From NCBI GenBank assembly GCA_903939845.1, contig CAJAIJ010000007.1, positions 1 through 64,000 on the forward strand: a stretch of DNA of 64,000 nt. Direction: 5' to 3'. Under the pieces are notes generated by a model. It worked only from the letters and a program-made list of their open reading frames with translations. It was not told the origin of the DNA and searched no databases. Made by a program: the position numbers and the translations under genes. Each line of letters opens with the position of its first letter. The stretch's first letter is position 1. Origin of the DNA: an uncultured Solirubrobacterales bacterium. GTDB lineage: Bacteria > Actinomycetota > Thermoleophilia > Solirubrobacterales > 70-9. Positions 28,195-41,592 of the stretch are shown here, in pieces.

Positions 28195-29277
28195 ATGAAG
28201 GTCCTCTGTGCATCCGACTCGCCGACCTGGCAGCTGCTTTTGCAGAGGTCGGTCGAGGCGCTCGGGCACGAACCGACCCTGGCCTCGGACGGAGACGAGG
28301 CCTGGGACCGGATCCTCACCGACGAAGAGATCGATGCCTGCATCACCGACCGCCAGATGCCGGGACTGAGCGGAGACGAGCTGGTGGCCCGGATCAGGAC
28401 CGAACTAGGGAATCGCTACGTCTACACGGTCCTCCTGACCGCTCAGGACAGCTCTGAGGAAGTGATCGACGGCATGGAGGGTGGGGCCGACGACTACCTG
28501 ATCAAACCCCTCGATCAGGTGGCACTCGCGACCCGTCTGATCGCGGCCGAACGGGTGACCGGACTGCACCGGACGATCGCCGAGCAGCAGGAAGAAATCG
28601 AGCGTCTGTACGGCAAGCTCAAGGATGCCTTCAAGCGGTTCGTGCCGGAATCGGTCGCCGAACAGATCATCACTCGATCCGATGAGGGCGTGCGCCTCGG
28701 TGGGGTCTCCCGGACCGCGACCGTCATGTTCACCGACCTCAGGGGCTTCACCCAGTTCTCCGAGCACCAGGAACCGGAGAAGGTCATCGACGTCGTCAAT
28801 CGTTACCTCGGCGAGATGTCCGAGGCGATCCTGAACGAAGAGGGGACCATCGTCGCCTACATGGGCGACGGGATCATGGCTGTCTTCGGGGCCCCGATCG
28901 AGCAGGAGGACCACGCCGACCGGGCGCTCAGGGCAGCAAGGGCGATGCTCGACACCCACCTGCCGAGGTTCGGCGAGTGGATGAAGGAACAGGGCTACGG
29001 GGAGGGGTTCCGGATGGGGATCGGGCTGAACTCCGGAGGGGTGGTCTCGGGCAACGTCGGATCCGAGAAGCGTCTGGAATACACGGCCCTCGGGGACACG
29101 ACCAACACCGCAGCGAGGCTCGAGGGAATGACCAAGGGCACCGCACATCAGCTCTACTGCTCCGAGACGACCAGAGAGATGCTCCAGGATCCTCCCCCGG
29201 ATCTGGTCTTCGTCGACGAAGTCGACATCCGGGGCCGCGACCAGCCGCTCGGGGTCTGGTCGCTCGACGGGGATTGA
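28195..29277 (+). CDS. Response regulator receiver domain fused to class III adenylate/guanylate cyclase
   Basis: REC ([33 protein letters not shown]) plus cyclase ([49 protein letters not shown]). Confidence 0.93.
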
Positions 29278-29311: not shown

Positions 29312-31306
29312 ATGTTCAGACCGGGCGACCCAACCCCGGAGGGGGCGAGCGAAGAACAGGAGGCCGAACCCGGCGCACCGCGTCGCAGCTGGCTGCTTGC
29401 CTCATCCGGCCGCCTGCCGGCGCTGTTGGTCGCACTGGCCGTCATCCCGGCCGCGGTGATCGCTCTCATCTCCTGGAACCAGAGCCGGATGCTGCTGGAG
29501 AGGGGAGCAGGTGACAGCCTGGCCAACACGGCATCCTCGCTGGTCGGATACACCGAAGCATCCTTCGAGAACTTCCTCAAGGAGACAGAAGCGGTCTCGC
29601 AATACCCGGAGATCAGGGCGATGAATCCGACCAGATCAACTGCCCTCCTGACCAACGAGGTCGAGGCGTTCTCCCCCCTCTACCGTCAGGCGCTCCTGGC
29701 AGACCCCCGGGGAAGGGTGATCGCCGCTGCAACGAGGCCACCAGACGTCCGTGAAGAGATAGCTCTGTCTGATTTCCGCGGGGTCGATGTTCGGGGGGAG
29801 GACTGGTTCCGGGATGCTCTCGAGGGATTCGACGGCAGCCGTGCAAAGGCCAACCTCGAAACGGTCGAGTACCGGCCGATCATCGGGAAGGTCGAGGGCT
29901 CCGGTTCGAAACCGCCGGCCCCGGTGGTCTCGATCGCCGTCCTCGAAGGGCCGTCCGGCGACCGTCGAGTGACGGGAGTCCTCGCGCTGTTTCCCAACTG
30001 GCCGGTGCTCGCCGTGGAGTTCTCGGAGGACGTCTCCGAGCAGGCCCGCCGTGCCGGCAAAGAGGGGGTCGCGGGGCTGCTCGTCGATCGCAAGGGCCGC
30101 ACCCTGGCCGGCCCCGACGGAACGGTCGCACTCGACACCGACTTCAGCAAGGACGGCGTGATCCAGAAGGCCTTCGAGGAAAAGACGGCCGGATGGGTGA
30201 AGTACTACGACGACCCGAACGACGGCGGCTGGCTCGGTGGCGAGACGATCGGGGCCTACGACACCTTCAGCCAGAGCTTCATCGATCAGGGCATCGACTG
30301 GGCCTGGATTATCGGTCAGGAGGAAAAGGATGCCCTTGCCGACACAAAGGGGCTCCGGACCAATCTGATCCTGCTGACCCTGGCGATCGCGATTGCGGCA
30401 GGGCTGATCGCACTCCTCGTCGGCAGGGGCCTGGCCAGCCGTGCCGGGCGGCTGCGCTCCAGTGCCCGGGAAGTAGAGGAGGGTGCCGTCTCGCTGAAGG
30501 GAAGCGCCGAGAAGGGTCGGGGTCGGGCCCAAAGGACGGCCGAGCTCGCCTCGGACCAGGTCCTGGGACTCGAGGACATGCGAAGGCGCGTCGAGGACAT
30601 GCGGGAGACCGGGCTCAGGATCGGCGACAGCGCCAAGCTGGTCGCCGAACAGGCCGGTCGGGCAGCCGCAGCCGGAGAAGAGGGCCGGACGGCAGCGATC
30701 GAGGTAGACAGGTCGATGGCCGAAATCGACGAAAGGGTCAGGACCCTGGCCTCGGAGATCGGTGCCCTGACCCGCCAGACGGACCAGATCGGAGAGATCA
30801 TCGCGACCGTTTCGAGCATCGCCGACCAGTCGAATCTGCTGGCCTTCAACGCGACCATCGAGGCGGCCAAGGCCGGTGAGCACGGGGCAGGCTTCAGCGT
30901 CGTGGCAGAAGAGGTCCGGACCCTTGCCGAGCAGTCGAAACGGGCGACCGCCCAGATCCGTTCGATCCTGAGCGAGATTGATCGTGCCACCCAGGAGGCC
31001 CAGAGGTCTGCGGTCGAAGGCATCGAGGCGGTCGAATCCGGCAGAGAGCGTGCCGAGAGTGCCGCCCGCACGATCGAACAGCTGGCAGAGGCGAATCAGG
31101 AGGCCGAGAAGACGACCTCTGAGATCGCGGGCCTTGCTCCGGCCCAGCAGGAGGAAAGCGCGAGGGTCATCTCCGCGGCCGAGAAGTCACTGGAGAGGGC
31201 TACCAAGGTCCGGTCCGAGGCCGAGGAATCGGCCCACTCGACCGCGGAGCTAGATCGCCTCGCCGAACGTCTCCGGGAGCTTTCCTCGACCCTGACCGGT
31301 GGGTAG
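29312..31306 (+). CDS. Methyl-accepting chemotaxis protein with large extracytoplasmic sensor
   Basis: Two TM segments flanking a ~300-aa sensor; signalling tip [43 protein letters not shown]. Confidence 0.94.
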
Positions 31307-31734
31307 TGGAACTCGACGAAGTCCAGGTCGGCGACCTGATCGAACTTTCCCCGGGCGGCCGGGCGTTCAGGCAGTCCGACCTGATCCACATCGTCAGTGA
31401 CCCCTCGATCGCACCGCTGGTCGGTGCCGGTGAAGCCTGGGTCGGACTCGCGAACCTCTCGGGAAACCTGATCCCGGTCGCAGACCTCGGAATCCTCGAT
31501 TCGGGGAGGCCGGGCGAGGGGAAAACGATGCTCGCGATCAGGGCCGACGGGGTCTCCTTCGGCCTGCTCTGCGAAGGGGTGCTCCGGACCTGCGCCTCGC
31601 CACCGAACGATGCGCTTGCCGACGAGCCGCTGCCTGACGACCCTGCCTGGCTGCTCGCTTCACCTCCGGGAGAGCCGCGACTGATCGAACCTCGGCTCCT
31701 GCTCGAAGATCCCAGGCTGGGCCCGATCAGGTGA
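31306..31734 (+). CDS. CheW-like scaffold protein
   Basis: GTG start overlapping the MCP stop; VGLANLSGNLIPVADLGIL CheW-like core. Confidence 0.82.
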   Translation: MELDEVQVGDLIELSPGGRAFRQSDLIHIVSDPSIAPLVGAGEAWVGLANLSGNLIPVADLGILDSGRPGEGKTMLAIRADGVSFGLLCEGVLRTCASPPNDALADEPLPDDPAWLLASPPGEPRLIEPRLLLEDPRLGPIR

Positions 31735-33821
31735 CCCGAGCGTTCAGACCTGATGACGAGCTGAGGAGGGAGCTCCTGCAGCTGTTCGCCGCCGAATCGC
31801 GGGATGAGGTCGAGGTGATCTCCAGCGGGCTGGTGGCGCTGGAGTCCGATGCCGCAGGTGCGATCGGGGCCGGCAGGACCGACGAGATGATGAGGGCGGC
31901 ACACAGCCTCAAGGGAGGGGCCCGGGCGGTCGAACTCGAGTCGGTAGATCGGCTGGCGCACGCCCTCGAGGGGCTTCTCAAGGCGGCCGGTGACCGGGGC
32001 GCCTTCGACGGCGAGACGGTCGACCTCGCCTACCGTGCCCTGGATGGAATCGAAGCGATAATCGCGGCCGCCACCGGTGGTCCTCCGGCCGAAGTCAACG
32101 TCACGGGCCTCACCGACGAGCTCCAGACAGCCATCACCGGCCTGCCGGGAGAAAGGCCGGCTCCGACCGAACCTTCGCCCCGCTCGACTGCCCCTGCTCC
32201 CGCACCGGCGCCCGAAGCCCTTCCCGAGCCGACCGGGCCCTCTCCCCTCGGCCAGCCCGATGCCACCGTCAGGGTCAGGGTTTCGAAACTCGACGGCCTG
32301 ATGGCGGCCGTCAGGGAGCTCGAGGCCGCCCGGGTCGGGGTAGAGCACGCGACCGGCATTCTCACCGAGCGGGCCGAGGCCGACGACCTCAAGGCGAGGG
32401 AATACGACGTTCGCGCGGGGAACATAAGAGAGACGACTGCCGCCCCTCTGACCCGGCTCGAGAGGGCCGCTCGCGAGGTCGCGGGAGAGGTCTCCGAAGC
32501 CCGGACCGTCCCCCTTTCGCTGGCATTCGACCCGCTCCCGAGGACGGTTCGTGACCTTGGGCGCGACCTCGGACGGGAGGTCGAGCTAACGACCTCGGGC
32601 GGCGAGGTGGACGTCGACCGGGCCGTGATGGAGGTCCTGAGGCCCGCCTTCGTCCACGTGATCAGAAACGCGATCGACCACGGGATCGAGTCGCCTGCCG
32701 CACGAGCAGCAGGAGGCAAGGACGAAAAGGGACGGGTGACGGTCACGGGCAGAACATCGGCGGGACTGCTCGAGATCGAGGTGGCAGACGACGGCGCAGG
32801 AATCGACGCCGATGCCATCCGTCGCTCTGCCATCTCCAGGGAGCTGATCACGGCCGAAGAGGCCGACGCCCTTCCCTACGCGGAGTTGATCGAGTTCGTG
32901 ACGAGGCCTGGATTCAGTACTCGGGACAAGGTGACCGAGATCTCGGGACGGGGAGTCGGACTCGACGCAGTCAACGAGGGGCTCGGCTCGATTCAGGGCA
33001 CCCTCGGGATCACCTCGATCCCCGGATCGGGCTCGAAGGTCACCATGACGGTTCCCCTTGCGATCGCCGCCACTGAGGTGATCGTGGCCGAGCTCGGAGG
33101 CCTGCCGATCGGGATATCTCTGAGCGATGCAGCCCGGATAGTGGCGCTCGAAGGCCCCTCGGACGAGGCGATCGAGGTCGATGGTGCTCCGGTCCCCTTC
33201 TGCTCGGACACGACCCTCGAGGCTCTCGCTCCTCACGGTCGTGGCGAAGCGACCTGTGCGATCGCCGTCGAGGTGGGAGGTCGACGGATCGCTCTGCCTG
33301 TGGAGCGGCTCCGCACCGTCCAGAGACTCTCGACCATGCCACTTCCCGAACCCCTGCCAAGGGTCAGCCTGATCAGGTCCGCTGCGATTCTCCCGGACGG
33401 AGACGTGCTCAGGGTTATCGAGGTCCGGACCCTGATCGAGGATCTCCCTCCCCCACCCGTAGTCCTGATCGCCGACGACTCGGCCGCCTGGCTGGAGAGA
33501 GCGAGACGCCATCTGGCGAACCACGGCTGGCGGGTCGAGACGGCCCCCGACGGTCGAGTCGCCCTCGCGATGCTCGGGGAAGGGAATTTCGACGCCCTCC
33601 TGACCGATGTCGAGATGCCGGGGCACGATGGGATCGAGCTCACCGACATGGTCAGGAAGGACTCCGAACTGGCCGACATCCGGGTTGTCGTCTGGTCAGC
33701 CTCTGCCGAAGACGCCGGGCCGGCTGCGCTGGCTGCAGGTGCCGACGCCTTCCTGATCAAGGAACCCGGGGCCGAGGATGACGCCGCAGCGGCCCTCAGG
33801 CCGGACGATCCGGAGGACTGA
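31731..33821 (+). CDS. CheA-type histidine kinase with C-terminal receiver domain
   Basis: Hpt (AAHSLKGGAR), HVIRNAIDHGIE, VADDGAGID, ISGRGVGLDAV, CheW-like domain, REC (ALLTDVEMPGHDG, DAFLIKE). Confidence 0.94.
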   Translation: MTRAFRPDDELRRELLQLFAAESRDEVEVISSGLVALESDAAGAIGAGRTDEMMRAAHSLKGGARAVELESVDRLAHALEGLLKAAGDRGAFDGETVDLAYRALDGIEAIIAAATGGPPAEVNVTGLTDELQTAITGLPGERPAPTEPSPRSTAPAPAPAPEALPEPTGPSPLGQPDATVRVRVSKLDGLMAAVRELEAARVGVEHATGILTERAEADDLKAREYDVRAGNIRETTAAPLTRLERAAREVAGEVSEARTVPLSLAFDPLPRTVRDLGRDLGREVELTTSGGEVDVDRAVMEVLRPAFVHVIRNAIDHGIESPAARAAGGKDEKGRVTVTGRTSAGLLEIEVADDGAGIDADAIRRSAISRELITAEEADALPYAELIEFVTRPGFSTRDKVTEISGRGVGLDAVNEGLGSIQGTLGITSIPGSGSKVTMTVPLAIAATEVIVAELGGLPIGISLSDAARIVALEGPSDEAIEVDGAPVPFCSDTTLEALAPHGRGEATCAIAVEVGGRRIALPVERLRTVQRLSTMPLPEPLPRVSLIRSAAILPDGDVLRVIEVRTLIEDLPPPPVVLIADDSAAWLERARRHLANHGWRVETAPDGRVALAMLGEGNFDALLTDVEMPGHDGIELTDMVRKDSELADIRVVVWSASAEDAGPAALAAGADAFLIKEPGAEDDAAAALRPDDPED

Positions 33822-35526
33822 CCAGGTCCCGGACCCGTTCCAGGGCGGCCTCCCCGGCCGCCCGCCCGATCTCGATCGCACGATCGAAGTCCCCGAACGC
33901 GAGCATCTTCAGCTCCGCCACCTCGGGTTCGATCACCAGATCGGCCCTTCCGGTTGCGGTCTCGCCGGCTGCGGCCGAGCCCAGCATCACGGAACGCATC
34001 AAGGTCTCCCCGATGGCCGGCAGGGTCGGCAGGCCGTCGGGGTCGGTCTCGGCCCGGAACTTCCCTCCGACCTCGACCGCCACTACAGGCCCCTCGACCA
34101 TGTCGGCCATAACGTCGACCGGCAGGTTCCTGATCAGGCCGCCGTCTACCAGGAGCCTGCCTTCGGAGCGACCCGGCGGCAAGAAGGCCGGAATCCGGGC
34201 CGTATTCATCGCCGCCTCGGCCACCGGCCCGGTCCTCTGGACGACCATCTCGGCCCTGACCATGTCTGCCGCGATCGTGAACAGGTCGACCGGAAGGGTC
34301 TCGATCGCCCGATCTCCAAAGATCCTGTCGAGAACCCGCTCGGCCCCTTCGGTGCGGGCCATGGCACTCCTGGGAGGGAGCTGGTAGCGATGTCTGACCC
34401 TGCCGCTGAAGACGGCCTTCAGGGCCCTCCGCCGCGACGGGGCATCGAGTCCTGCCGCGAATGCCGATGCCGCGACCCCGCCCATGCTGGTGCCACCGAT
34501 CCGGTCGATCGCGATCCCGTTCTCCTCGAACACTTCGATCAGGCCGAGATGGGCGAACCCCCTCGCTCCGCCACCGCCGAGGACGAGCCCCAGGGAAGAG
34601 CCGGTGAGCCTCCGGGCGGTCCGGGCGAGGTCTGCTTCACGCTCGGCACCCGCACGGATCCTGTGGCGAGCCCGGGGCTTCAGCCTCTCGATCCAGGCCA
34701 TCGCGATCCCGGGTGGATGATCGGCACCGGCCAGGACGAGGTCGCACCCCTTGAGCCTCGGCATCTCCTTGCCGGGAGGAGGCCTCCGGGGCGGGGCGAC
34801 ACAGACCAGGCGATCGGCCTGGCGAACGCAGAACTTCCGCCACTCCCCCTCGTTTCGGTCGGCGACGAGCATCACCCGTTCGTGCCGGCGCTCCGACTCG
34901 TCGAGCAGGTGACCCCACGAAATCGGATCGCCGGACTCGGCAGTGGAGGGATCGAGGACCGTCACGCCCCCGAGGTCGGCGAAGGCCCTCCTGACGCCAT
35001 CGGCCAGGACGGCGACGTCCATGCCGTCGAGGAGCGGCACGACCGCGAAGGTCGAGGCTTCGGGAAGATCGTCGGGGAGGCCTCCACTGGCCTGTAGCTG
35101 ACGGCCGAGTGCCGAAACCAGGGCGCTGGTGAAACTCGGCACCGTGGTCATCAGCTCCCGGAAGTCTTCGAACGTGAGCCTGAGAAGGCTCGAGTCCCGA
35201 CTCGCCCTGACCGAGGCCGAACGCACGTCGCCCGTGACCAGCGCGAGCTCACCGACGGTTGCGCCCGGACCGAGGACCCGGAGGACCTCAATCCCCTGGT
35301 CGTCCAGACCGGACTCCGGCCCGTCGCCCCGGACCACCTCGAGCCTCCCGGTCTCGACCAGGTAGAGGGCGTCGCCGGGATCGCCCTTCCTCATGAGCCA
35401 GTCTCCCGACTCGATCCGGACCGGTTCGAGCCGGCCGAGGATCAGTTCACGGGCATCGTCAGGGAGGATCCCGAAGAGCGGGCTGTGGGCCAGAATGGCC
35501 TCGATCTGTCTTCCGTTGCCTTCCAA
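33796..35526 (-). CDS. Cyclic-nucleotide-binding domain fused to patatin-like phospholipase (NTE-like)
   Basis: TTG start; CNB domain (GDPGDALYLVETGRLEVVRG, VGELALVTGDVRSASVRA); patatin LGGGGARGFAHLG, GTSMGG, DGGLIRN. Confidence 0.93.
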   Translation of the reverse strand: MEGNGRQIEAILAHSPLFGILPDDARELILGRLEPVRIESGDWLMRKGDPGDALYLVETGRLEVVRGDGPESGLDDQGIEVLRVLGPGATVGELALVTGDVRSASVRASRDSSLLRLTFEDFRELMTTVPSFTSALVSALGRQLQASGGLPDDLPEASTFAVVPLLDGMDVAVLADGVRRAFADLGGVTVLDPSTAESGDPISWGHLLDESERRHERVMLVADRNEGEWRKFCVRQADRLVCVAPPRRPPPGKEMPRLKGCDLVLAGADHPPGIAMAWIERLKPRARHRIRAGAEREADLARTARRLTGSSLGLVLGGGGARGFAHLGLIEVFEENGIAIDRIGGTSMGGVAASAFAAGLDAPSRRRALKAVFSGRVRHRYQLPPRSAMARTEGAERVLDRIFGDRAIETLPVDLFTIAADMVRAEMVVQRTGPVAEAAMNTARIPAFLPPGRSEGRLLVDGGLIRNLPVDVMADMVEGPVVAVEVGGKFRAETDPDGLPTLPAIGETLMRSVMLGSAAAGETATGRADLVIEPEVAELKMLAFGDFDRAIEIGRAAGEAALERVRDLVSPPDRPA

Positions 35527-35634: not shown

Positions 35635-36462
35635 ATGAAACCGGATGAAAAAAGACCTGACGCCTGGCTCTGCTCCTACCCCAAGAGCGGCCGCACCTGG
35701 ATGCGCTTCGCTCTCTCGAATCTGATCGAGGAGACCTTCGACCTCGGGGTCGACATCGATACGGCCAACATGTTCGGCCTCATTCCCAACGATGACGGGC
35801 CCGACCACACCAGGCCCTGGAAGACGATCGACAACTTCTCTTACGGGGACCACCAGGGCCTGCCGCTCATCGCGATGAGTCACCTTCCCCGGGACGACCG
35901 ATTCGCCTCGATCCCGGTCGTCCTCCTGATCAGGAACCCGGCTGCCTCGCTCGTGTCCCGGTTCTTCCACATGTCCAGACACGCCGGACAGTTCGAGGGC
36001 GGTCTGCCCGAGTTCGCCCGCGACGAGTTCTACGGGGTGCCCGGAATCGTCCATTACTTCTCCTCATGGGAGCCCCATCTCGACGATCCGAACGTCGAGG
36101 TCGTCTCCTACGAGGAGCTGAGGTCCGAGCCGCTCGAACCCTTTGGGAGAATCGCCCGTCAGCTTGGCATCCAGGCCGATGATGCAGCGCTCGAGAAGGC
36201 TCTGGACGCAGCCCGGGTGGACAGGATGAGGGCCGTGGAGAAGAAGTCCGGCGTCGGCCAGCCGAACGAGTACGACCGCAACGACCCCGGAGCCCTGAGG
36301 GTCAGGAAGGCGAGCGCCACCGGATGGCGGGACGAGATCGACGAGGAGACGCTCGAGTTCCTGATCCGTTCCCTCGAGGAGGATCGGGCCGCGCGCTCGC
36401 TGCTCGAGCGCTTTGGACTGATGCCCGACAGCCCTGCGGTCGAACCCTGTCCCAACCGGTAG
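35635..36462 (+). CDS. Sulfotransferase (PAPS-dependent)
   Basis: AWLCSYPKSGRTWMRFAL 5'-PSB loop; VVLLIRNPAASLVSRFFHM 3'-PB motif. Confidence 0.87.
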   Translation: MKPDEKRPDAWLCSYPKSGRTWMRFALSNLIEETFDLGVDIDTANMFGLIPNDDGPDHTRPWKTIDNFSYGDHQGLPLIAMSHLPRDDRFASIPVVLLIRNPAASLVSRFFHMSRHAGQFEGGLPEFARDEFYGVPGIVHYFSSWEPHLDDPNVEVVSYEELRSEPLEPFGRIARQLGIQADDAALEKALDAARVDRMRAVEKKSGVGQPNEYDRNDPGALRVRKASATGWRDEIDEETLEFLIRSLEEDRAARSLLERFGLMPDSPAVEPCPNR

Positions 36463-36472
36463 ATTGCGGCGA

Positions 36473-38302
36473 ATGAGCGAGCAAGGCCAGCAGACGATCG
36501 AGAGGCTCGGCCCCGCCGATGCGTCGAACCTGGGCGGCGGGATCAACCATCTGGTGATCGGCCTCTGCCGCCTCGATCGCCGCTCCGATGGATCCATCCC
36601 CTCCTTCGACGAAGTCCGTGACCTCGTCTCGGAGAGGCTTGAGAGATCGCCTCGATTCCGCCAGTTTCCCTACCTCCCCGAAGGAGCATCGGGTCTACCC
36701 GTTTGGGCGGACGCACAGGACTTCGACATCGACGATCACCTCATCGAGGCGACGGTCGATGGTCCGGTGGACCGGCATGAGCTCGACGTCCTGCTTGCCG
36801 AATGGATGACGACGCCGATCGACGAGTCGAAGCCGCTCTGGATGGTGCAGTACGTCCCGACCACGGAGGGAACGGCCCTGATGGTCAAGTCGAGCCACGC
36901 CCTCGCCGACGGCCTCGGCTCGATCGCACTCTTCGCGATGCTCCTCTTCGACATCTCGGAGGACTCGGAGCGAAGCGAGGCGTCCCCCTGGACGTCAGGC
37001 CCCCTTCCCGACGCCGCCGACCTGAAGGCCGCCCACGGGCCGGGCGACTCCGAGTCCGGGGATGCCGCCGAGACGCCTCTCCAGAAGGCCATCTCGCTCG
37101 TCTCGAGTCCGACGGCCCTGAGGGAGACCGCATCGAATACCGCCGACATCAGCGGCTACCTGATCCGGAAGGCGAGGACCGAGGTTCCTGCGAGTCCGCT
37201 GGCCGATGGTTCCGGCGCTCCGCTCGAACTCCACACGCTCGAATACCCGCTCGACCGCCTCAAGCTCCTCGGGCGGGGCCTCGGTACCGGGGCGACGATG
37301 AACGACGTGATCCTCGGACTGACCGCAGGTGGGTTGAGGCAGTGGTGCATCGAAAACGGCCATCAACTCGACGACCTCATGGTCAGGGTCCCGGTGGCAC
37401 TGAAGAAGGAGCGCAAGGAGGGCGAGGGCGGCAACCCCGGCGTCGCTCCGATGATCGTGCCCCTCCCCATGGCCGAGGAGGACCCGGTCCGGCGGGTCCG
37501 ACTCCTGCGGGAGCGGACCGAGGCGATCAAGGCCGCAGGTGAGCCGGCGCTGAACCTCGCCGTCAGGAACCTCTCGAGGGAGGCCCCGGGAGCCGTCGGT
37601 GACCGGATGCTGAAGCTGATCACCGGCCGTGGCCAGGCGAACATCGCGATCCACAACCTTCCCGGGCCGCCCCTGAAGCTCTTCGTGCTCGGAGCGCCGA
37701 CCGCCTCTTTCCACAGCTTCACCCTGCCCCGCCCGGGCCTCGCGATCCATCTCAACGTGGTCTCGGTGGGAGGTGTCGTATCGATTGGTCTCGCGGCAGA
37801 CCAGGGCGTCGTCGGAGAACTCGACTCATTCGTGCGTGGGGTCGAGGAGACCGAGAAGGCCCTTGCCGGCGGAGTCTCGAAGCTGGACCTCGTCAGGCGC
37901 GTTCCGATGCTCGCACCGCTCGACGACGAAATGCAGGAAGACCTCGCTTCACGGATGGTCGAGCGAAAGGTGGAGGCAGGCGAGACGCTCGTCGCAGAAG
38001 GCGATCCGGCCGAGGAGTTCTTCCTGATCGTCGAAGGAACGTTCGACACCCTGATTCAGGGTGATCCCGTCCGGACGATGCAGCCCGGTGACTCGTTCGG
38101 AGAGATCGGTCTCCTGAGGGATTCCGAGAGAACGGCGACCGTGGTGGCACGCGACGACGGAGCCGTGATGGTCCTCGGCCGCGACGACTTCCTGGGGGCC
38201 GTCGCGGCGGATCCTTCGAGCATGGTCGTGGCGGACGCGATCATCAACACCCGCCTCGGAGACCTCGGTCGCTACCAGGTCTTCGGCGACCCGGAAGCCT
38301 GA
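36473..38302 (+). CDS. WS/DGAT acyltransferase fused to C-terminal cyclic-nucleotide-binding domain
   Basis: SSHALADGLGS (HHxxxDG variant), GATMNDVILGLTAGGLR, NLPGPPLKLFVLGAP; then CNB domain (EGDPAEEFFLIVEGTFDTL, FGEIGLLRDSERTATVVA). Confidence 0.92.
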   Translation: MSEQGQQTIERLGPADASNLGGGINHLVIGLCRLDRRSDGSIPSFDEVRDLVSERLERSPRFRQFPYLPEGASGLPVWADAQDFDIDDHLIEATVDGPVDRHELDVLLAEWMTTPIDESKPLWMVQYVPTTEGTALMVKSSHALADGLGSIALFAMLLFDISEDSERSEASPWTSGPLPDAADLKAAHGPGDSESGDAAETPLQKAISLVSSPTALRETASNTADISGYLIRKARTEVPASPLADGSGAPLELHTLEYPLDRLKLLGRGLGTGATMNDVILGLTAGGLRQWCIENGHQLDDLMVRVPVALKKERKEGEGGNPGVAPMIVPLPMAEEDPVRRVRLLRERTEAIKAAGEPALNLAVRNLSREAPGAVGDRMLKLITGRGQANIAIHNLPGPPLKLFVLGAPTASFHSFTLPRPGLAIHLNVVSVGGVVSIGLAADQGVVGELDSFVRGVEETEKALAGGVSKLDLVRRVPMLAPLDDEMQEDLASRMVERKVEAGETLVAEGDPAEEFFLIVEGTFDTLIQGDPVRTMQPGDSFGEIGLLRDSERTATVVARDDGAVMVLGRDDFLGAVAADPSSMVVADAIINTRLGDLGRYQVFGDPEA

Positions 38303-38317
38303 TCCTCCGGGGGGATC

Positions 38318-39118
38318 GTGGCCGACTCGCCGACCGCCTGGCTCTGTTCCTACCCGAAGAGCGGCAGGACCTGGATGAGGTTCGCCCTGGTCGACCTGCT
38401 CGACCGCAGGCACGACCTCGGCGGGGAGTTCGACATGGAAAACATGTTCGGCCTTGTCCCGAACAGCGACGGCGAAGGAAAGACGCAGCCGTGGAAGACG
38501 CCGGAGAACTACCGGTTCCGCGACCGGTCCGACGTCCCGTTCGTCATTGCGAGCCACCTGAGATGGGAGCCGGCCTTCTCAGAGCTTCCAAACGTCTTCC
38601 TGGTTCGTAACCCGGGTGACGTGGTCGTCTCCCGCTTCCACCACATGCGCCGCCACGAAGGGAAGTTCTCGGGGTCGCTCGCCGAGTTCGTCGGTGACCG
38701 GGAATGGGGGCTTCCGGACCTTCTCGGCTACCTCGAGTCCTGGCAGCCGCACATCGGTGATCCCGGCACGACCGTCGTCACCTACGAGGCCCTGAAGGCC
38801 GATCCGGTCACGTCCTTCGGGCGACTTGTCGGGGGACTCGGCATCGAGGCTTCCCGAGAGGAACTCGAGACAGCTCTGGAGTCGGCCTCGGTGGATCGGA
38901 TGCGAAAGGTCGAGGCCAGCAGCGGAGTTGGTCAGCCGCAGGCCTACGACTTCGACGACCCCGACGCAAGGCGAGTCCGAAAGGCCAAGGTGGGAAGCTG
39001 GCGCGAGGAGATGGACGACGACACGATCGCGATGATGCTCGCCGAGATCGAGACCTCACCCGCAGTTCGGGAGATGCTCGAGAAACTGGGCATCATGCCC
39101 GGGCCCGAAGCCGTCTGA
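38318..39118 (+). CDS. Sulfotransferase, paralogue of 35635-36462
   Basis: GTG start; AWLCSYPKSGRTWMRFAL, VFLVRNPGDVVVSRFHHM; SGVGQPQAYDFDDPDARRVRKA shared with the paralogue. Confidence 0.87.
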   Translation: MADSPTAWLCSYPKSGRTWMRFALVDLLDRRHDLGGEFDMENMFGLVPNSDGEGKTQPWKTPENYRFRDRSDVPFVIASHLRWEPAFSELPNVFLVRNPGDVVVSRFHHMRRHEGKFSGSLAEFVGDREWGLPDLLGYLESWQPHIGDPGTTVVTYEALKADPVTSFGRLVGGLGIEASREELETALESASVDRMRKVEASSGVGQPQAYDFDDPDARRVRKAKVGSWREEMDDDTIAMMLAEIETSPAVREMLEKLGIMPGPEAV

Positions 39119-39123
39119 ACTGC

Positions 39124-40530
39124 TCAGGCCTGCGCCAGGGACTCGTCTTCGCCGGTCTCCTCGACGTCCAGGCCCCCTTCGCCCGGACCGGGGCCCCTGA
39201 ACATCCTCATTGCCCAGGCTGCTGCGAGCGCGAGCACGATGATTCCGGCCCCGATCAGGGCCGCCTCGGACATGCTGTCGGCAAACACCTGAAGGCCTTC
39301 ATTCAGCTCGGCCACGGGGAGAGTGGAGGAATCCGCCGGGTGCTGGATCTGCTGGTAGATCTGTTCGGCCTTGTCGGCAGCGTAGGTCGCTCCGAGCGAT
39401 CCCAGGATCAGGGCGTTGGTGATCGCACCCAGTATCAGCGAACCGACCACGTTCCCGGCCTGGGATGCGACCGTCATGGTGCCCGAGATCATTCCCCGCT
39501 GGACCGGGTCGGCGTCGGCGATCGCATGGACGTTGACCGGGGTGGTCGCGAGGTTGACGGCGATCCCGAGGACGAACATCGGAATCACGATCAGGGCATA
39601 GGACTCGACCGTCAGGGCGAACGCGATGAACCCCAGACAGACGGCAACCAGCAGGAAGCCGACGATGGTCGGTGGACGCCACCCGATCTTGTCCTTCAGA
39701 CGCCCCGAAAGAACACCACCGATCGCGATCCCGAGGATCCCGGGGAGCATCGCCAGGCCGGCCTGTATGGGGCTGAAGCCGAGCACGCTCTGGAAGTAGA
39801 TCCCGGAGTAGATGAAGACCCAGATCAAGGGGAGCCGGATCCAGAAGATGAGGAAGATCCCGGCCCTCAGCGACGGCCTCTTCAGCATCTCCATCGTGAC
39901 CAGTCGCTTCTTGTTGCGGTCGACGCCCTCCCCGGCCGATCTGAGGAAGACGTGGTTCATGATCAGGAGCGGCGCGATGATGATCGGGTTCACCAGGAAG
40001 ATCCATTCCCAGGCGACCAGGTCCACGATCGCGCCGCCGAGCAGTGGGCCGATCGCAAGGCCGACCGCGCTGACCGCGGCGTAGACGCCGAACGCCGTCC
40101 CGGTCTTGCCCTCGGGCGCGACCCTGGTCACGAGTGCCTGGATGCAGGGCATCAGGATCGCGGCGCCGATTCCCTGAACGACGCGTCCCCCGATGATCAT
40201 CGGTGCATCGGCGGCCAGCCCGCACATCAATGAACCGATCCCGAAGATGACCAGCCCGACGTTCATGCCCCTCAACTGCCCGATCCGGTCGCCGAACATC
40301 CCGCCCGGAATCAGAAGGAAGGTGAAGGAGAGAAGGTAGGCGTTGACGACCCACTGGCCCTGGGCGGGGGACAGCCCGAGATCCTCCTCGACCGTCGGCA
40401 GGGCGACCGAGATGATCGTGAGATCGATGGCAGTGACCAGGCTCGCCATTGCCAGGACGAAGATCGAGACCTTCCAGCCACGCGCCGAAAGGCCCCCGCC
40501 GCCTCCCTGGTTTGTCTCAGGCATAGCCAT
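39124..40530 (-). CDS. MFS transporter, DHA2/EmrB-QacA-like
   Basis: Multiple TM helices; MFGDRIGQLRGMNVGLVIFGIGSLMCGLA, VQGIGAAILMPC, GKTGTAFGVYAAVSAVGLAIGPLLGG. Confidence 0.92.
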   Translation of the reverse strand: MAMPETNQGGGGGLSARGWKVSIFVLAMASLVTAIDLTIISVALPTVEEDLGLSPAQGQWVVNAYLLSFTFLLIPGGMFGDRIGQLRGMNVGLVIFGIGSLMCGLAADAPMIIGGRVVQGIGAAILMPCIQALVTRVAPEGKTGTAFGVYAAVSAVGLAIGPLLGGAIVDLVAWEWIFLVNPIIIAPLLIMNHVFLRSAGEGVDRNKKRLVTMEMLKRPSLRAGIFLIFWIRLPLIWVFIYSGIYFQSVLGFSPIQAGLAMLPGILGIAIGGVLSGRLKDKIGWRPPTIVGFLLVAVCLGFIAFALTVESYALIVIPMFVLGIAVNLATTPVNVHAIADADPVQRGMISGTMTVASQAGNVVGSLILGAITNALILGSLGATYAADKAEQIYQQIQHPADSSTLPVAELNEGLQVFADSMSEAALIGAGIIVLALAAAWAMRMFRGPGPGEGGLDVEETGEDESLAQA

Positions 40531-41395
40531 CTGCGACGAGCCTATCCCCCAGCACGGCCTCCATCGCAGTCACTTCCTCGGGCGTGAGGTTTTCCTGCCA
40601 GGTCCCGGGCTTTGCGAAACGGATCTCGTGACCGGGTCCCTTCCGGTCCTGCGGGACGTTCCGGTGGGCCTCGGCCTCGACCAGATCACCGACCAGCTTC
40701 GGGTCGGCATCGAGTTCGAGGGTCTCGAGGATCGCACCCAGGTGGCGAACCGGCTCGGAGAGGAGATCCTCGTAACGGACCTTGATCCGGCGAGCGGGAT
40801 CGTGTGCGTCGTAGGCGGCCTGGACGGCCTCGGTCCGGTACTTCCAGACCGCCGCCTGCCACCGGATGAACCCGACCCGGCCTTCCTGTCCAACCGCGTA
40901 GGCGCCGTCGTTGGAGGCCCAGGTTCCCTCCCGGTAGGCGTCGAGCCAGGAGTCGACGACATCCCTGCCATCCCTGAGCAGGAAGACGAGGCGCGAGCCC
41001 GGAGTGATCGAGACCAGCTCGGAAGCCATGTGGGAGCCGCCGGGCTCCTTGATGACCACCCGCTTCGAATCTTCCCTCCAGCCCGGCTCGGAGTTATCCA
41101 ACTGATGCTCGAGCCTCTCCCGGAAGAGTCTCTCGAGTCCGGGCCTCCAGACGTGCTCGTACTCCTCATTGAAGAAGTAGTCCTTACGTTCTTCCTTGAT
41201 CTTCTTGAAGGTGGTCAGCTCAGGCGGACCGGGCGACTGCCACGCGAGCGCGATGGGCCTCCAGACCCCGAGGTGGTGACCGAGGCCGGTCTCGTCGATC
41301 CCGACCACGTCGGGGTGGTGCCGGAGCATCCTGAGCAACCAGGTCGATCCGCTTCGGGAAGATCCGAAGATCCAGGTCAGGTCGGGCGAGGCCAA
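40517..41395 (-). CDS. Sulfotransferase family protein
   Basis: WIFGSSRSGSTWLLRML 5'-PSB loop; RLVFLLRDGRDVVDSWLDA; overlaps the MFS gene start. Confidence 0.86.
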   Translation of the reverse strand: MASPDLTWIFGSSRSGSTWLLRMLRHHPDVVGIDETGLGHHLGVWRPIALAWQSPGPPELTTFKKIKEERKDYFFNEEYEHVWRPGLERLFRERLEHQLDNSEPGWREDSKRVVIKEPGGSHMASELVSITPGSRLVFLLRDGRDVVDSWLDAYREGTWASNDGAYAVGQEGRVGFIRWQAAVWKYRTEAVQAAYDAHDPARRIKVRYEDLLSEPVRHLGAILETLELDADPKLVGDLVEAEAHRNVPQDRKGPGHEIRFAKPGTWQENLTPEEVTAMEAVLGDRLVADGYA

Positions 41396-41496: not shown

Positions 41497-41505
41497 ACTC
41501 GATAA

Positions 41506-41579
41506 TCGGGGCGCCCGGATTTGAACCGGGGACCTCACCGTCCCGAACGGTGCGCGCTACCAAGCTGCGCCACGCCCCG
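41506..41579 (-). tRNA. tRNA-Pro (anticodon CGG)
   Basis: Minus-strand cloverleaf CGGGGCG TG GCGC AGCTTGGTA GCGC G CACCG TTCGGGA CGGTG AGGTC CCCGG TTCAAAT CCGGG CGCCCCG A. Confidence 0.95.
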
Positions 41580-41592
41580 AGAGATCCGGACC

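What the first reader, a model, noticed from the sequence alone, without database searches (positions are those of the whole stretch)
36473..38302. WS/DGAT acyltransferase fused to a cyclic-nucleotide-binding domain
The C-terminal ~130 aa form a CNB domain with a phosphate-binding cassette (FGEIGLLRDSERTATV) that keeps the Glu and Arg. The N-terminal part is a WS/DGAT with SHALADG in place of HHxxxDG: the first His is Ser and the catalytic second His is kept. Direct second-messenger gating of storage-lipid synthesis would be unusual.
Basis: partly seen in the sequence, partly recalled or inferred. Interest (0 to 1): 0.8.

Follow-up and report, generated by a model that had tools for sequence, protein, structure and literature searches.

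The report
Cyclic-nucleotide-gated lipid acyltransferase in signalling cluster
In a few small-genome bacteria, several named from lake samples, an oil- or wax-making type of enzyme is permanently joined to a cyclic-nucleotide sensor and sits in a conserved gene block that also encodes a receptor, a signalling relay, a cyclic-nucleotide-making enzyme and sulfate-transferring enzymes, which suggests that an outside signal may directly switch the building of a cell-surface lipid.

Summary
The fusion is real. ORF 36473-38302(+) encodes 609 aa: WS_DGAT_cat, WS_DGAT_C, then a cyclic-nucleotide-binding (CNB) domain, all above Pfam cut-offs. It is conserved at 64-86% identity in nine of 232 Solirubrobacterales genomes from two families, both domains under purifying selection, so it is no frameshift. 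His142 and the CNB Glu544/Arg553 are kept throughout. The lost first histidine is ordinary: a Ser variant is active in vitro (TrWSD4). More telling is the surroundings. A conserved block encodes a receiver-class III cyclase fusion, the genome's only detected chemoreceptor, CheW, CheA, a divergent CNB-patatin, this enzyme, PAPS-type sulfotransferases and an MFS transporter; some loci add cysD/cysNC. Cyclase, CNB-patatin and WS-CNB co-occur exactly in 42 compared genomes. Best reading: a chemosensory relay makes a cyclic nucleotide that directly gates two lipid enzymes. 'Storage lipid' is not supported: the enzyme is divergent (below the TIGR02946 cut-off), and its context suggests a sulfated, exported lipid, as in mycobacterial SL-1. 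Ligand binding, nucleotide identity and product are untested; the cyclase's base-selecting Lys is Ala/Ser. New architecture of known parts; interest about 0.62.

The parts
36473..38302 (+). WS/DGAT-like acyltransferase fused to a C-terminal cyclic-nucleotide-binding domain (609 aa; catalytic H142/D146; PLW 121-123; NDVILG 277-282; CNB about 470-600 with E544 and R553)
   Evidence: Pfam, alignment of relatives, AlphaFold2 and Foldseek
28195..29277 (+). Response-regulator receiver fused to a class III nucleotidyl cyclase; both metal Asp kept; base-specifying position Ala (Ser in one relative) plus Thr instead of Lys
   Evidence: Pfam, alignment to 6fht and 2w01, motif scan of relatives
29312..31306 (+). 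Methyl-accepting chemoreceptor with weak dCache_1 match; the only MCP signalling domain detected in the genome
   Evidence: Pfam, own-genome search
31306..31734 (+). CheW-like coupling protein (just below Pfam gathering score)
   Evidence: Pfam 22.5 bits vs 23.5; conserved in place in relatives
31731..33821 (+). CheA-type kinase: Hpt, HATPase, CheW domain, C-terminal receiver
   Evidence: Pfam
33796..35520 (-). CNB domain plus patatin lipase (GTSMG and DGG motifs, GGGGARG); the listed ORF runs on to 36054, but relatives start near 35520
   Evidence: Pfam, motif scan
35635..36462 (+). PAPS-type sulfotransferase ST1 (Sulfotransfer_1); start set by homology
   Evidence: Pfam; YPKSGRTW motif in the sequence
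38318..39118 (+). PAPS-type sulfotransferase ST2 (Sulfotransfer_1)
   Evidence: Pfam
39124..40530 (-). MFS transporter (DHA2/EmrB-like), candidate exporter
   Evidence: Pfam and NCBIfam; conserved near WS-CNB
40517..41395 (-). Sulfotransferase ST3 (Sulfotransfer_3)
   Evidence: Pfam
41505..41580 (-). tRNA-Pro(CGG) bordering the block
   Evidence: ARAGORN

Best explanation
The protein is a condensation-fold (WS/DGAT-like) acyltransferase with its own cyclic-nucleotide switch. The neighbouring genes supply the rest of a dedicated pathway: an outside ligand is sensed by the single chemoreceptor; CheW and CheA pass phosphate to the receiver of the receiver-cyclase; the cyclase makes a cyclic nucleotide; this binds the CNB domains of the acyltransferase and of the divergently encoded patatin lipase and changes their activity. 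Acyl transfer, hydrolysis, sulfation (ST1-ST3) and export (MFS) would together build or remodel a sulfated envelope lipid. Shown: domains, motifs, synteny, co-occurrence, purifying selection. Inferred: phosphotransfer, ligand binding, direction of control, acceptor and product.
For: Fusion conserved and constrained. CNB cassette intact in the fused relatives. REC-cyclase, MCP, CheW, CheA, CNB-patatin and WS-CNB are syntenic in both families wherever the contig is long enough. Among 42 genomes the full-length REC-cyclase, the CNB-patatin at 60% or more and WS-CNB are present in exactly the same seven. Two of only three CNB domains found in the genome lie here, and the only detected MCP is here. 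Sulfotransferase and MFS genes are adjacent, with cysD/cysNC in the other family. The extra copy in G271 keeps an MFS neighbour and has GC3 about 0.92 against about 0.70 in its flanks, as if acquired as a two-gene unit. Precedents: the P. aeruginosa Pil-Chp system raises cAMP through CyaB (PMC10896506); in M. tuberculosis Stf0, PapA1/PapA2 and MmpL8 make and export SL-1 (PMC4183827).
Against: No binding, activity or lipid data exist. The cyclase's base-selecting Lys is Ala or Ser, so the product could be cAMP, cGMP, another nucleotide, or little at all. Syntenic genes are inherited together, so co-occurrence is not independent evidence for a pathway. Three other cyclase-family frames exist in the genome. 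The sulfotransferases may act on something other than the acylated product; the contig holds a second, six-gene sulfotransferase cluster.
Confidence: 0.55

Rival explanations
1. cNMP-gated storage lipid synthesis: the enzyme makes triacylglycerol or wax esters and the CNB-patatin breaks them down.
For: WS/DGAT fold and motifs PLW, NDVILG, HxxxDG; a lipase with a CNB domain next to it.
Against: Very divergent clade, below the TIGR02946 cut-off; sulfotransferases, transporter and PAPS genes in the block; an ordinary HHxxxDG WS/DGAT exists elsewhere in the genome.
Confidence: 0.2
2. The CNB domain is structural or a relic: it holds the enzyme in place or helps it oligomerise, without ligand control.
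For: Some CNB-fold domains do not respond to cyclic nucleotides (general knowledge); between the two families the CNB part is 55-70% identical against 68-73% for the enzyme part.
Against: Glu and Arg of the cassette kept throughout, purifying selection on the domain, exact co-occurrence with a cyclase.
Confidence: 0.2
3. A Pycsar-like anti-phage module: the cyclase makes a cyclic pyrimidine nucleotide that triggers the CNB lipase.
For: PADLOC profiles of PycC match the cyclase and PycTIR profiles match the CNB domains; unusual base-selecting residue.
Against: These matches lie in the shared cyclase and CNB domains only; no TIR or transmembrane effector; receptor, CheA, sulfotransferases and transporter do not fit.
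Confidence: 0.05

Closest known systems
Bacterial WS/DGAT O-acyltransferases (6chj of Marinobacter, 7nxg AbWSD1; TIGR02946)
   Same: Fold, both Pfam domains, PLW, HxxxDG, NDV motifs
   Different: C-terminal CNB domain; first His is Ser/Gly; IHNLPGP in place of (S/T)NVPGP; below the subfamily cut-off; long separate branch
Mycobacterial acetyltransferase Pat (CNB-GNAT, 4onu)
   Same: CNB domain fused to an acyl-transferring enzyme; its CNB is a relative
   Different: Different enzyme fold, order of domains and substrate
CNB-patatin proteins (NTE/Rv2565 type)
   Same: The neighbouring gene is of this kind; cNMP-linked lipid enzyme
   Different: Hydrolase rather than acyltransferase
Pil-Chp/CyaB chemosensory cAMP control in P. 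aeruginosa (PMC10896506)
   Same: MCP, CheW, CheA-type kinase controlling a class III cyclase
   Different: There a separate regulator PilG acts on CyaB and cAMP acts through transcription factor Vfr; here the receiver is fused to the cyclase and the effectors are enzymes
M. tuberculosis SL-1 locus (Stf0, PapA1/PapA2, MmpL8; PMC4183827)
   Same: Sulfotransferase, condensation-fold acyltransferase and transporter together
   Different: MFS instead of MmpL; no PKS in the block; CNB domain added; product here unknown

Membership tests
WS/DGAT O-acyltransferase | WS_DGAT_cat and WS_DGAT_C domains above Pfam cut-off | tested here: met
   92.7 vs 23.6 and 63 vs 20.7 bits
WS/DGAT O-acyltransferase | Catalytic second His of HHxxxDG | tested here: met
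   H142 invariant in the fused family
WS/DGAT O-acyltransferase | First His of HHxxxDG | tested here: not met
   Ser or Gly in fused proteins, His in all unfused ones compared; Ser compatible with activity in TrWSD4
NCBIfam TIGR02946 subfamily | Score above curated cut-off 309.95 | tested here: not met
   216.9 bits; relative in G271 250.5
WS/DGAT O-acyltransferase | Makes wax ester or triacylglycerol | not testable with these tools
   no assay
CNB domain | Phosphate-binding cassette with Glu and Arg | tested here: met
   E544, R553
CNB domain | Binds a cyclic nucleotide | not testable with these tools
   no assay
Class III nucleotidyl cyclase | Two metal-binding Asp and transition-state Asn/Arg | tested here: met
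   [25 protein letters not shown]
Class III adenylyl cyclase | Base-specifying Lys | tested here: not met
   Ala, or Ser in L064
Pil-Chp-like chemosensory cyclase control | MCP, CheW, CheA and cyclase encoded together | tested here: met
Pycsar | CNB effector with TIR or transmembrane part | tested here: not met
   CNB proteins here are patatin and WS/DGAT
SL-1-type sulfolipid locus | Sulfated acylated product | not testable with these tools
   only gene content seen

The most novel reading that the evidence does not exclude
A complete receptor-to-product chemosensory pathway in which CheA phosphorylates a receiver-cyclase whose nucleotide, possibly not cAMP, directly and oppositely switches a fused acyltransferase and a fused lipase to build or erase a sulfated surface lipid.
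Probability: 0.25. Interest if true: 0.85.

Novelty: new variant of a known kind. Interest (0 to 1): 0.62.

Why it matters
Bacterial cyclic nucleotides are best known for acting through transcription factors; direct gating of a lipid-making enzyme would be a rare post-translational route. The block encodes candidates for every step from receptor to enzyme, so the idea can be tested with purified proteins. I found no description of this fusion in the open-access library searched.

Tried and rejected
Frameshift or misassembly: rejected by conservation and dN/dS. Weak fusion candidates in G002, G050, G039, G048, G045 and G057, suggested by long match ranges or frames, contain no CNB domain. No relative in viral contigs or plasmids. 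No fused match outside the order in 397 genomes of the phylum at E<=1e-48; this would miss independent WS/DGAT-CNB fusions. A first structure model from 7 sequences was too poor (pLDDT 47.8). The YN00 dN/dS run mostly failed and was replaced by a Nei-Gojobori count. Literature searches gave nothing on such a fusion. His394 in IHNLPGP as a compensating residue for the lost first His is only an idea: distances in the model could not be measured.

Full report
Observation. The ORF at 36473-38302(+) encodes 609 residues in a single frame. Pfam finds WS_DGAT_cat (32-280), WS_DGAT_C (325-459) and cNMP_binding (498-578), all above gathering scores. The model built from 49 sequences is good (mean pLDDT 79, pTM 0.76), and its best structural matches are the two solved WS/DGATs, 6chj and 7nxg. 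The CNB cassette FGEIGLLRDSERTATV holds E544 and R553.

Not an artefact. The same fusion is found in nine of 232 Solirubrobacterales genomes, in two genera of two families, at 64-86% identity. Named records are metagenome-assembled genomes, several with lake or reservoir style isolate names (habitat is my reading of the names). In the pairs counted, dN/dS is 0.07-0.19 for the enzyme part and 0.06-0.26 for the CNB part (dS is near saturation in the wider pairs). Fused proteins form one side of a branch with 100% support and a very long stem (3.07 changes per column), so one origin is enough.

Active site. PLW, H142-xxx-DG and NDV are kept. The first His is Ser in most fused proteins and Gly in L059 and the second G271 copy; all unfused relatives compared have HH. 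This is compatible with activity: TrWSD4 has Ser there and was active as purified enzyme (PMC5513132), although the title of a paper cited in PMC5407786 says both His are essential for catalysis in this family. The fused family also has IHN(L/V)PGP where most relatives have TNVPGP. Its score for TIGR02946 is below the curated cut-off, while ordinary paralogues are well above. I therefore call it WS/DGAT-like and do not infer its acceptor.

Surroundings. From left to right: receiver-cyclase (28195-29277), chemoreceptor (29312-31306), CheW (31306-31734), CheA with receiver (31731-33821), CNB-patatin (33796-about 35520, minus), sulfotransferase ST1, WS-CNB, sulfotransferase ST2, MFS (minus), sulfotransferase ST3 (minus), tRNA-Pro. 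The order cyclase-MCP-CheW-CheA-patatin-WS is kept in both families; sulfotransferase and MFS genes follow; in the second family cysNC and cysD lie between WS-CNB and the sulfotransferase. G007 and G016 lack a separate ST1. In 42 genomes searched with each protein, full-length REC-cyclase, CNB-patatin at 60% or more and WS-CNB occur in the same seven and in no other; because the genes are linked this shows a unit, not independent events. The genome has one detected MCP domain, three CNB domains of which two are here (the third is in a 231-aa ORF, L110), and three other cyclase-family frames.

Cyclase. It aligns best with a bacteriophytochrome-adenylate cyclase chain (6fht) and with 2w01. The metal-binding and transition-state residues are present, but the position that is Lys in 6fht and Glu in 2w01 is Ala, or Ser in L064. 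Lys there is typical of adenylate and Glu of guanylate cyclases (PMC4886424). The nucleotide made is therefore open.

Mechanism. The simplest reading is receptor to CheW/CheA to receiver-cyclase to cyclic nucleotide to two CNB enzymes. The relay resembles Pil-Chp and CyaB, but with enzymes instead of a transcription factor at the end. The sulfotransferases, PAPS genes and transporter suggest a sulfated, exported lipid, as in SL-1. Every step after gene content is inference.

Spread. A second copy in G271 (L049) groups with the other family's proteins and, with its MFS neighbour, has GC3 0.91-0.93 against 0.68-0.77 in the flanks, consistent with transfer of a two-gene unit, although a chimeric contig cannot be excluded. 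The left border of the block differs between genomes of the same genus, while the right border by tRNA-Pro is shared in G000, G007 and G008.

Limits. The named-genome scan used two short peptide patterns and the phylum scan a strict threshold; independent WS/DGAT-CNB fusions elsewhere are not excluded. The paper library is open-access only.

Noticed in passing
G000:C7:91615-96858 (L109): A run of six further sulfotransferase-family matches on the same contig, about 50 kb from the finding, beside ORFs that look like polysaccharide genes.
   Followed up: partly
L049:8085-11283 (G271:C6): Second WS-CNB copy plus MFS with GC3 about 0.92 in a region of about 0.70, next to an elongation factor P gene; possible two-gene acquisition.
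   Followed up: partly
L107 (G026:C28): Two CNB-patatin genes close together, about 40% identical to the one here, with no WS/DGAT nearby.
   Followed up: partly
L063, L064: Records titled Bifidobacterium breve carry this Solirubrobacterales block; the titles look wrong.
   Followed up: no
window 28195-29277: Class III cyclase with Ala (Ser in L064) at the base-selecting Lys position; nucleotide specificity unknown.
   Followed up: partly
genomes of genus g1 and g17: Genomes with the block are all small (1.5-2.0 Mb); most relatives in g1 without it are larger.
   Followed up: no
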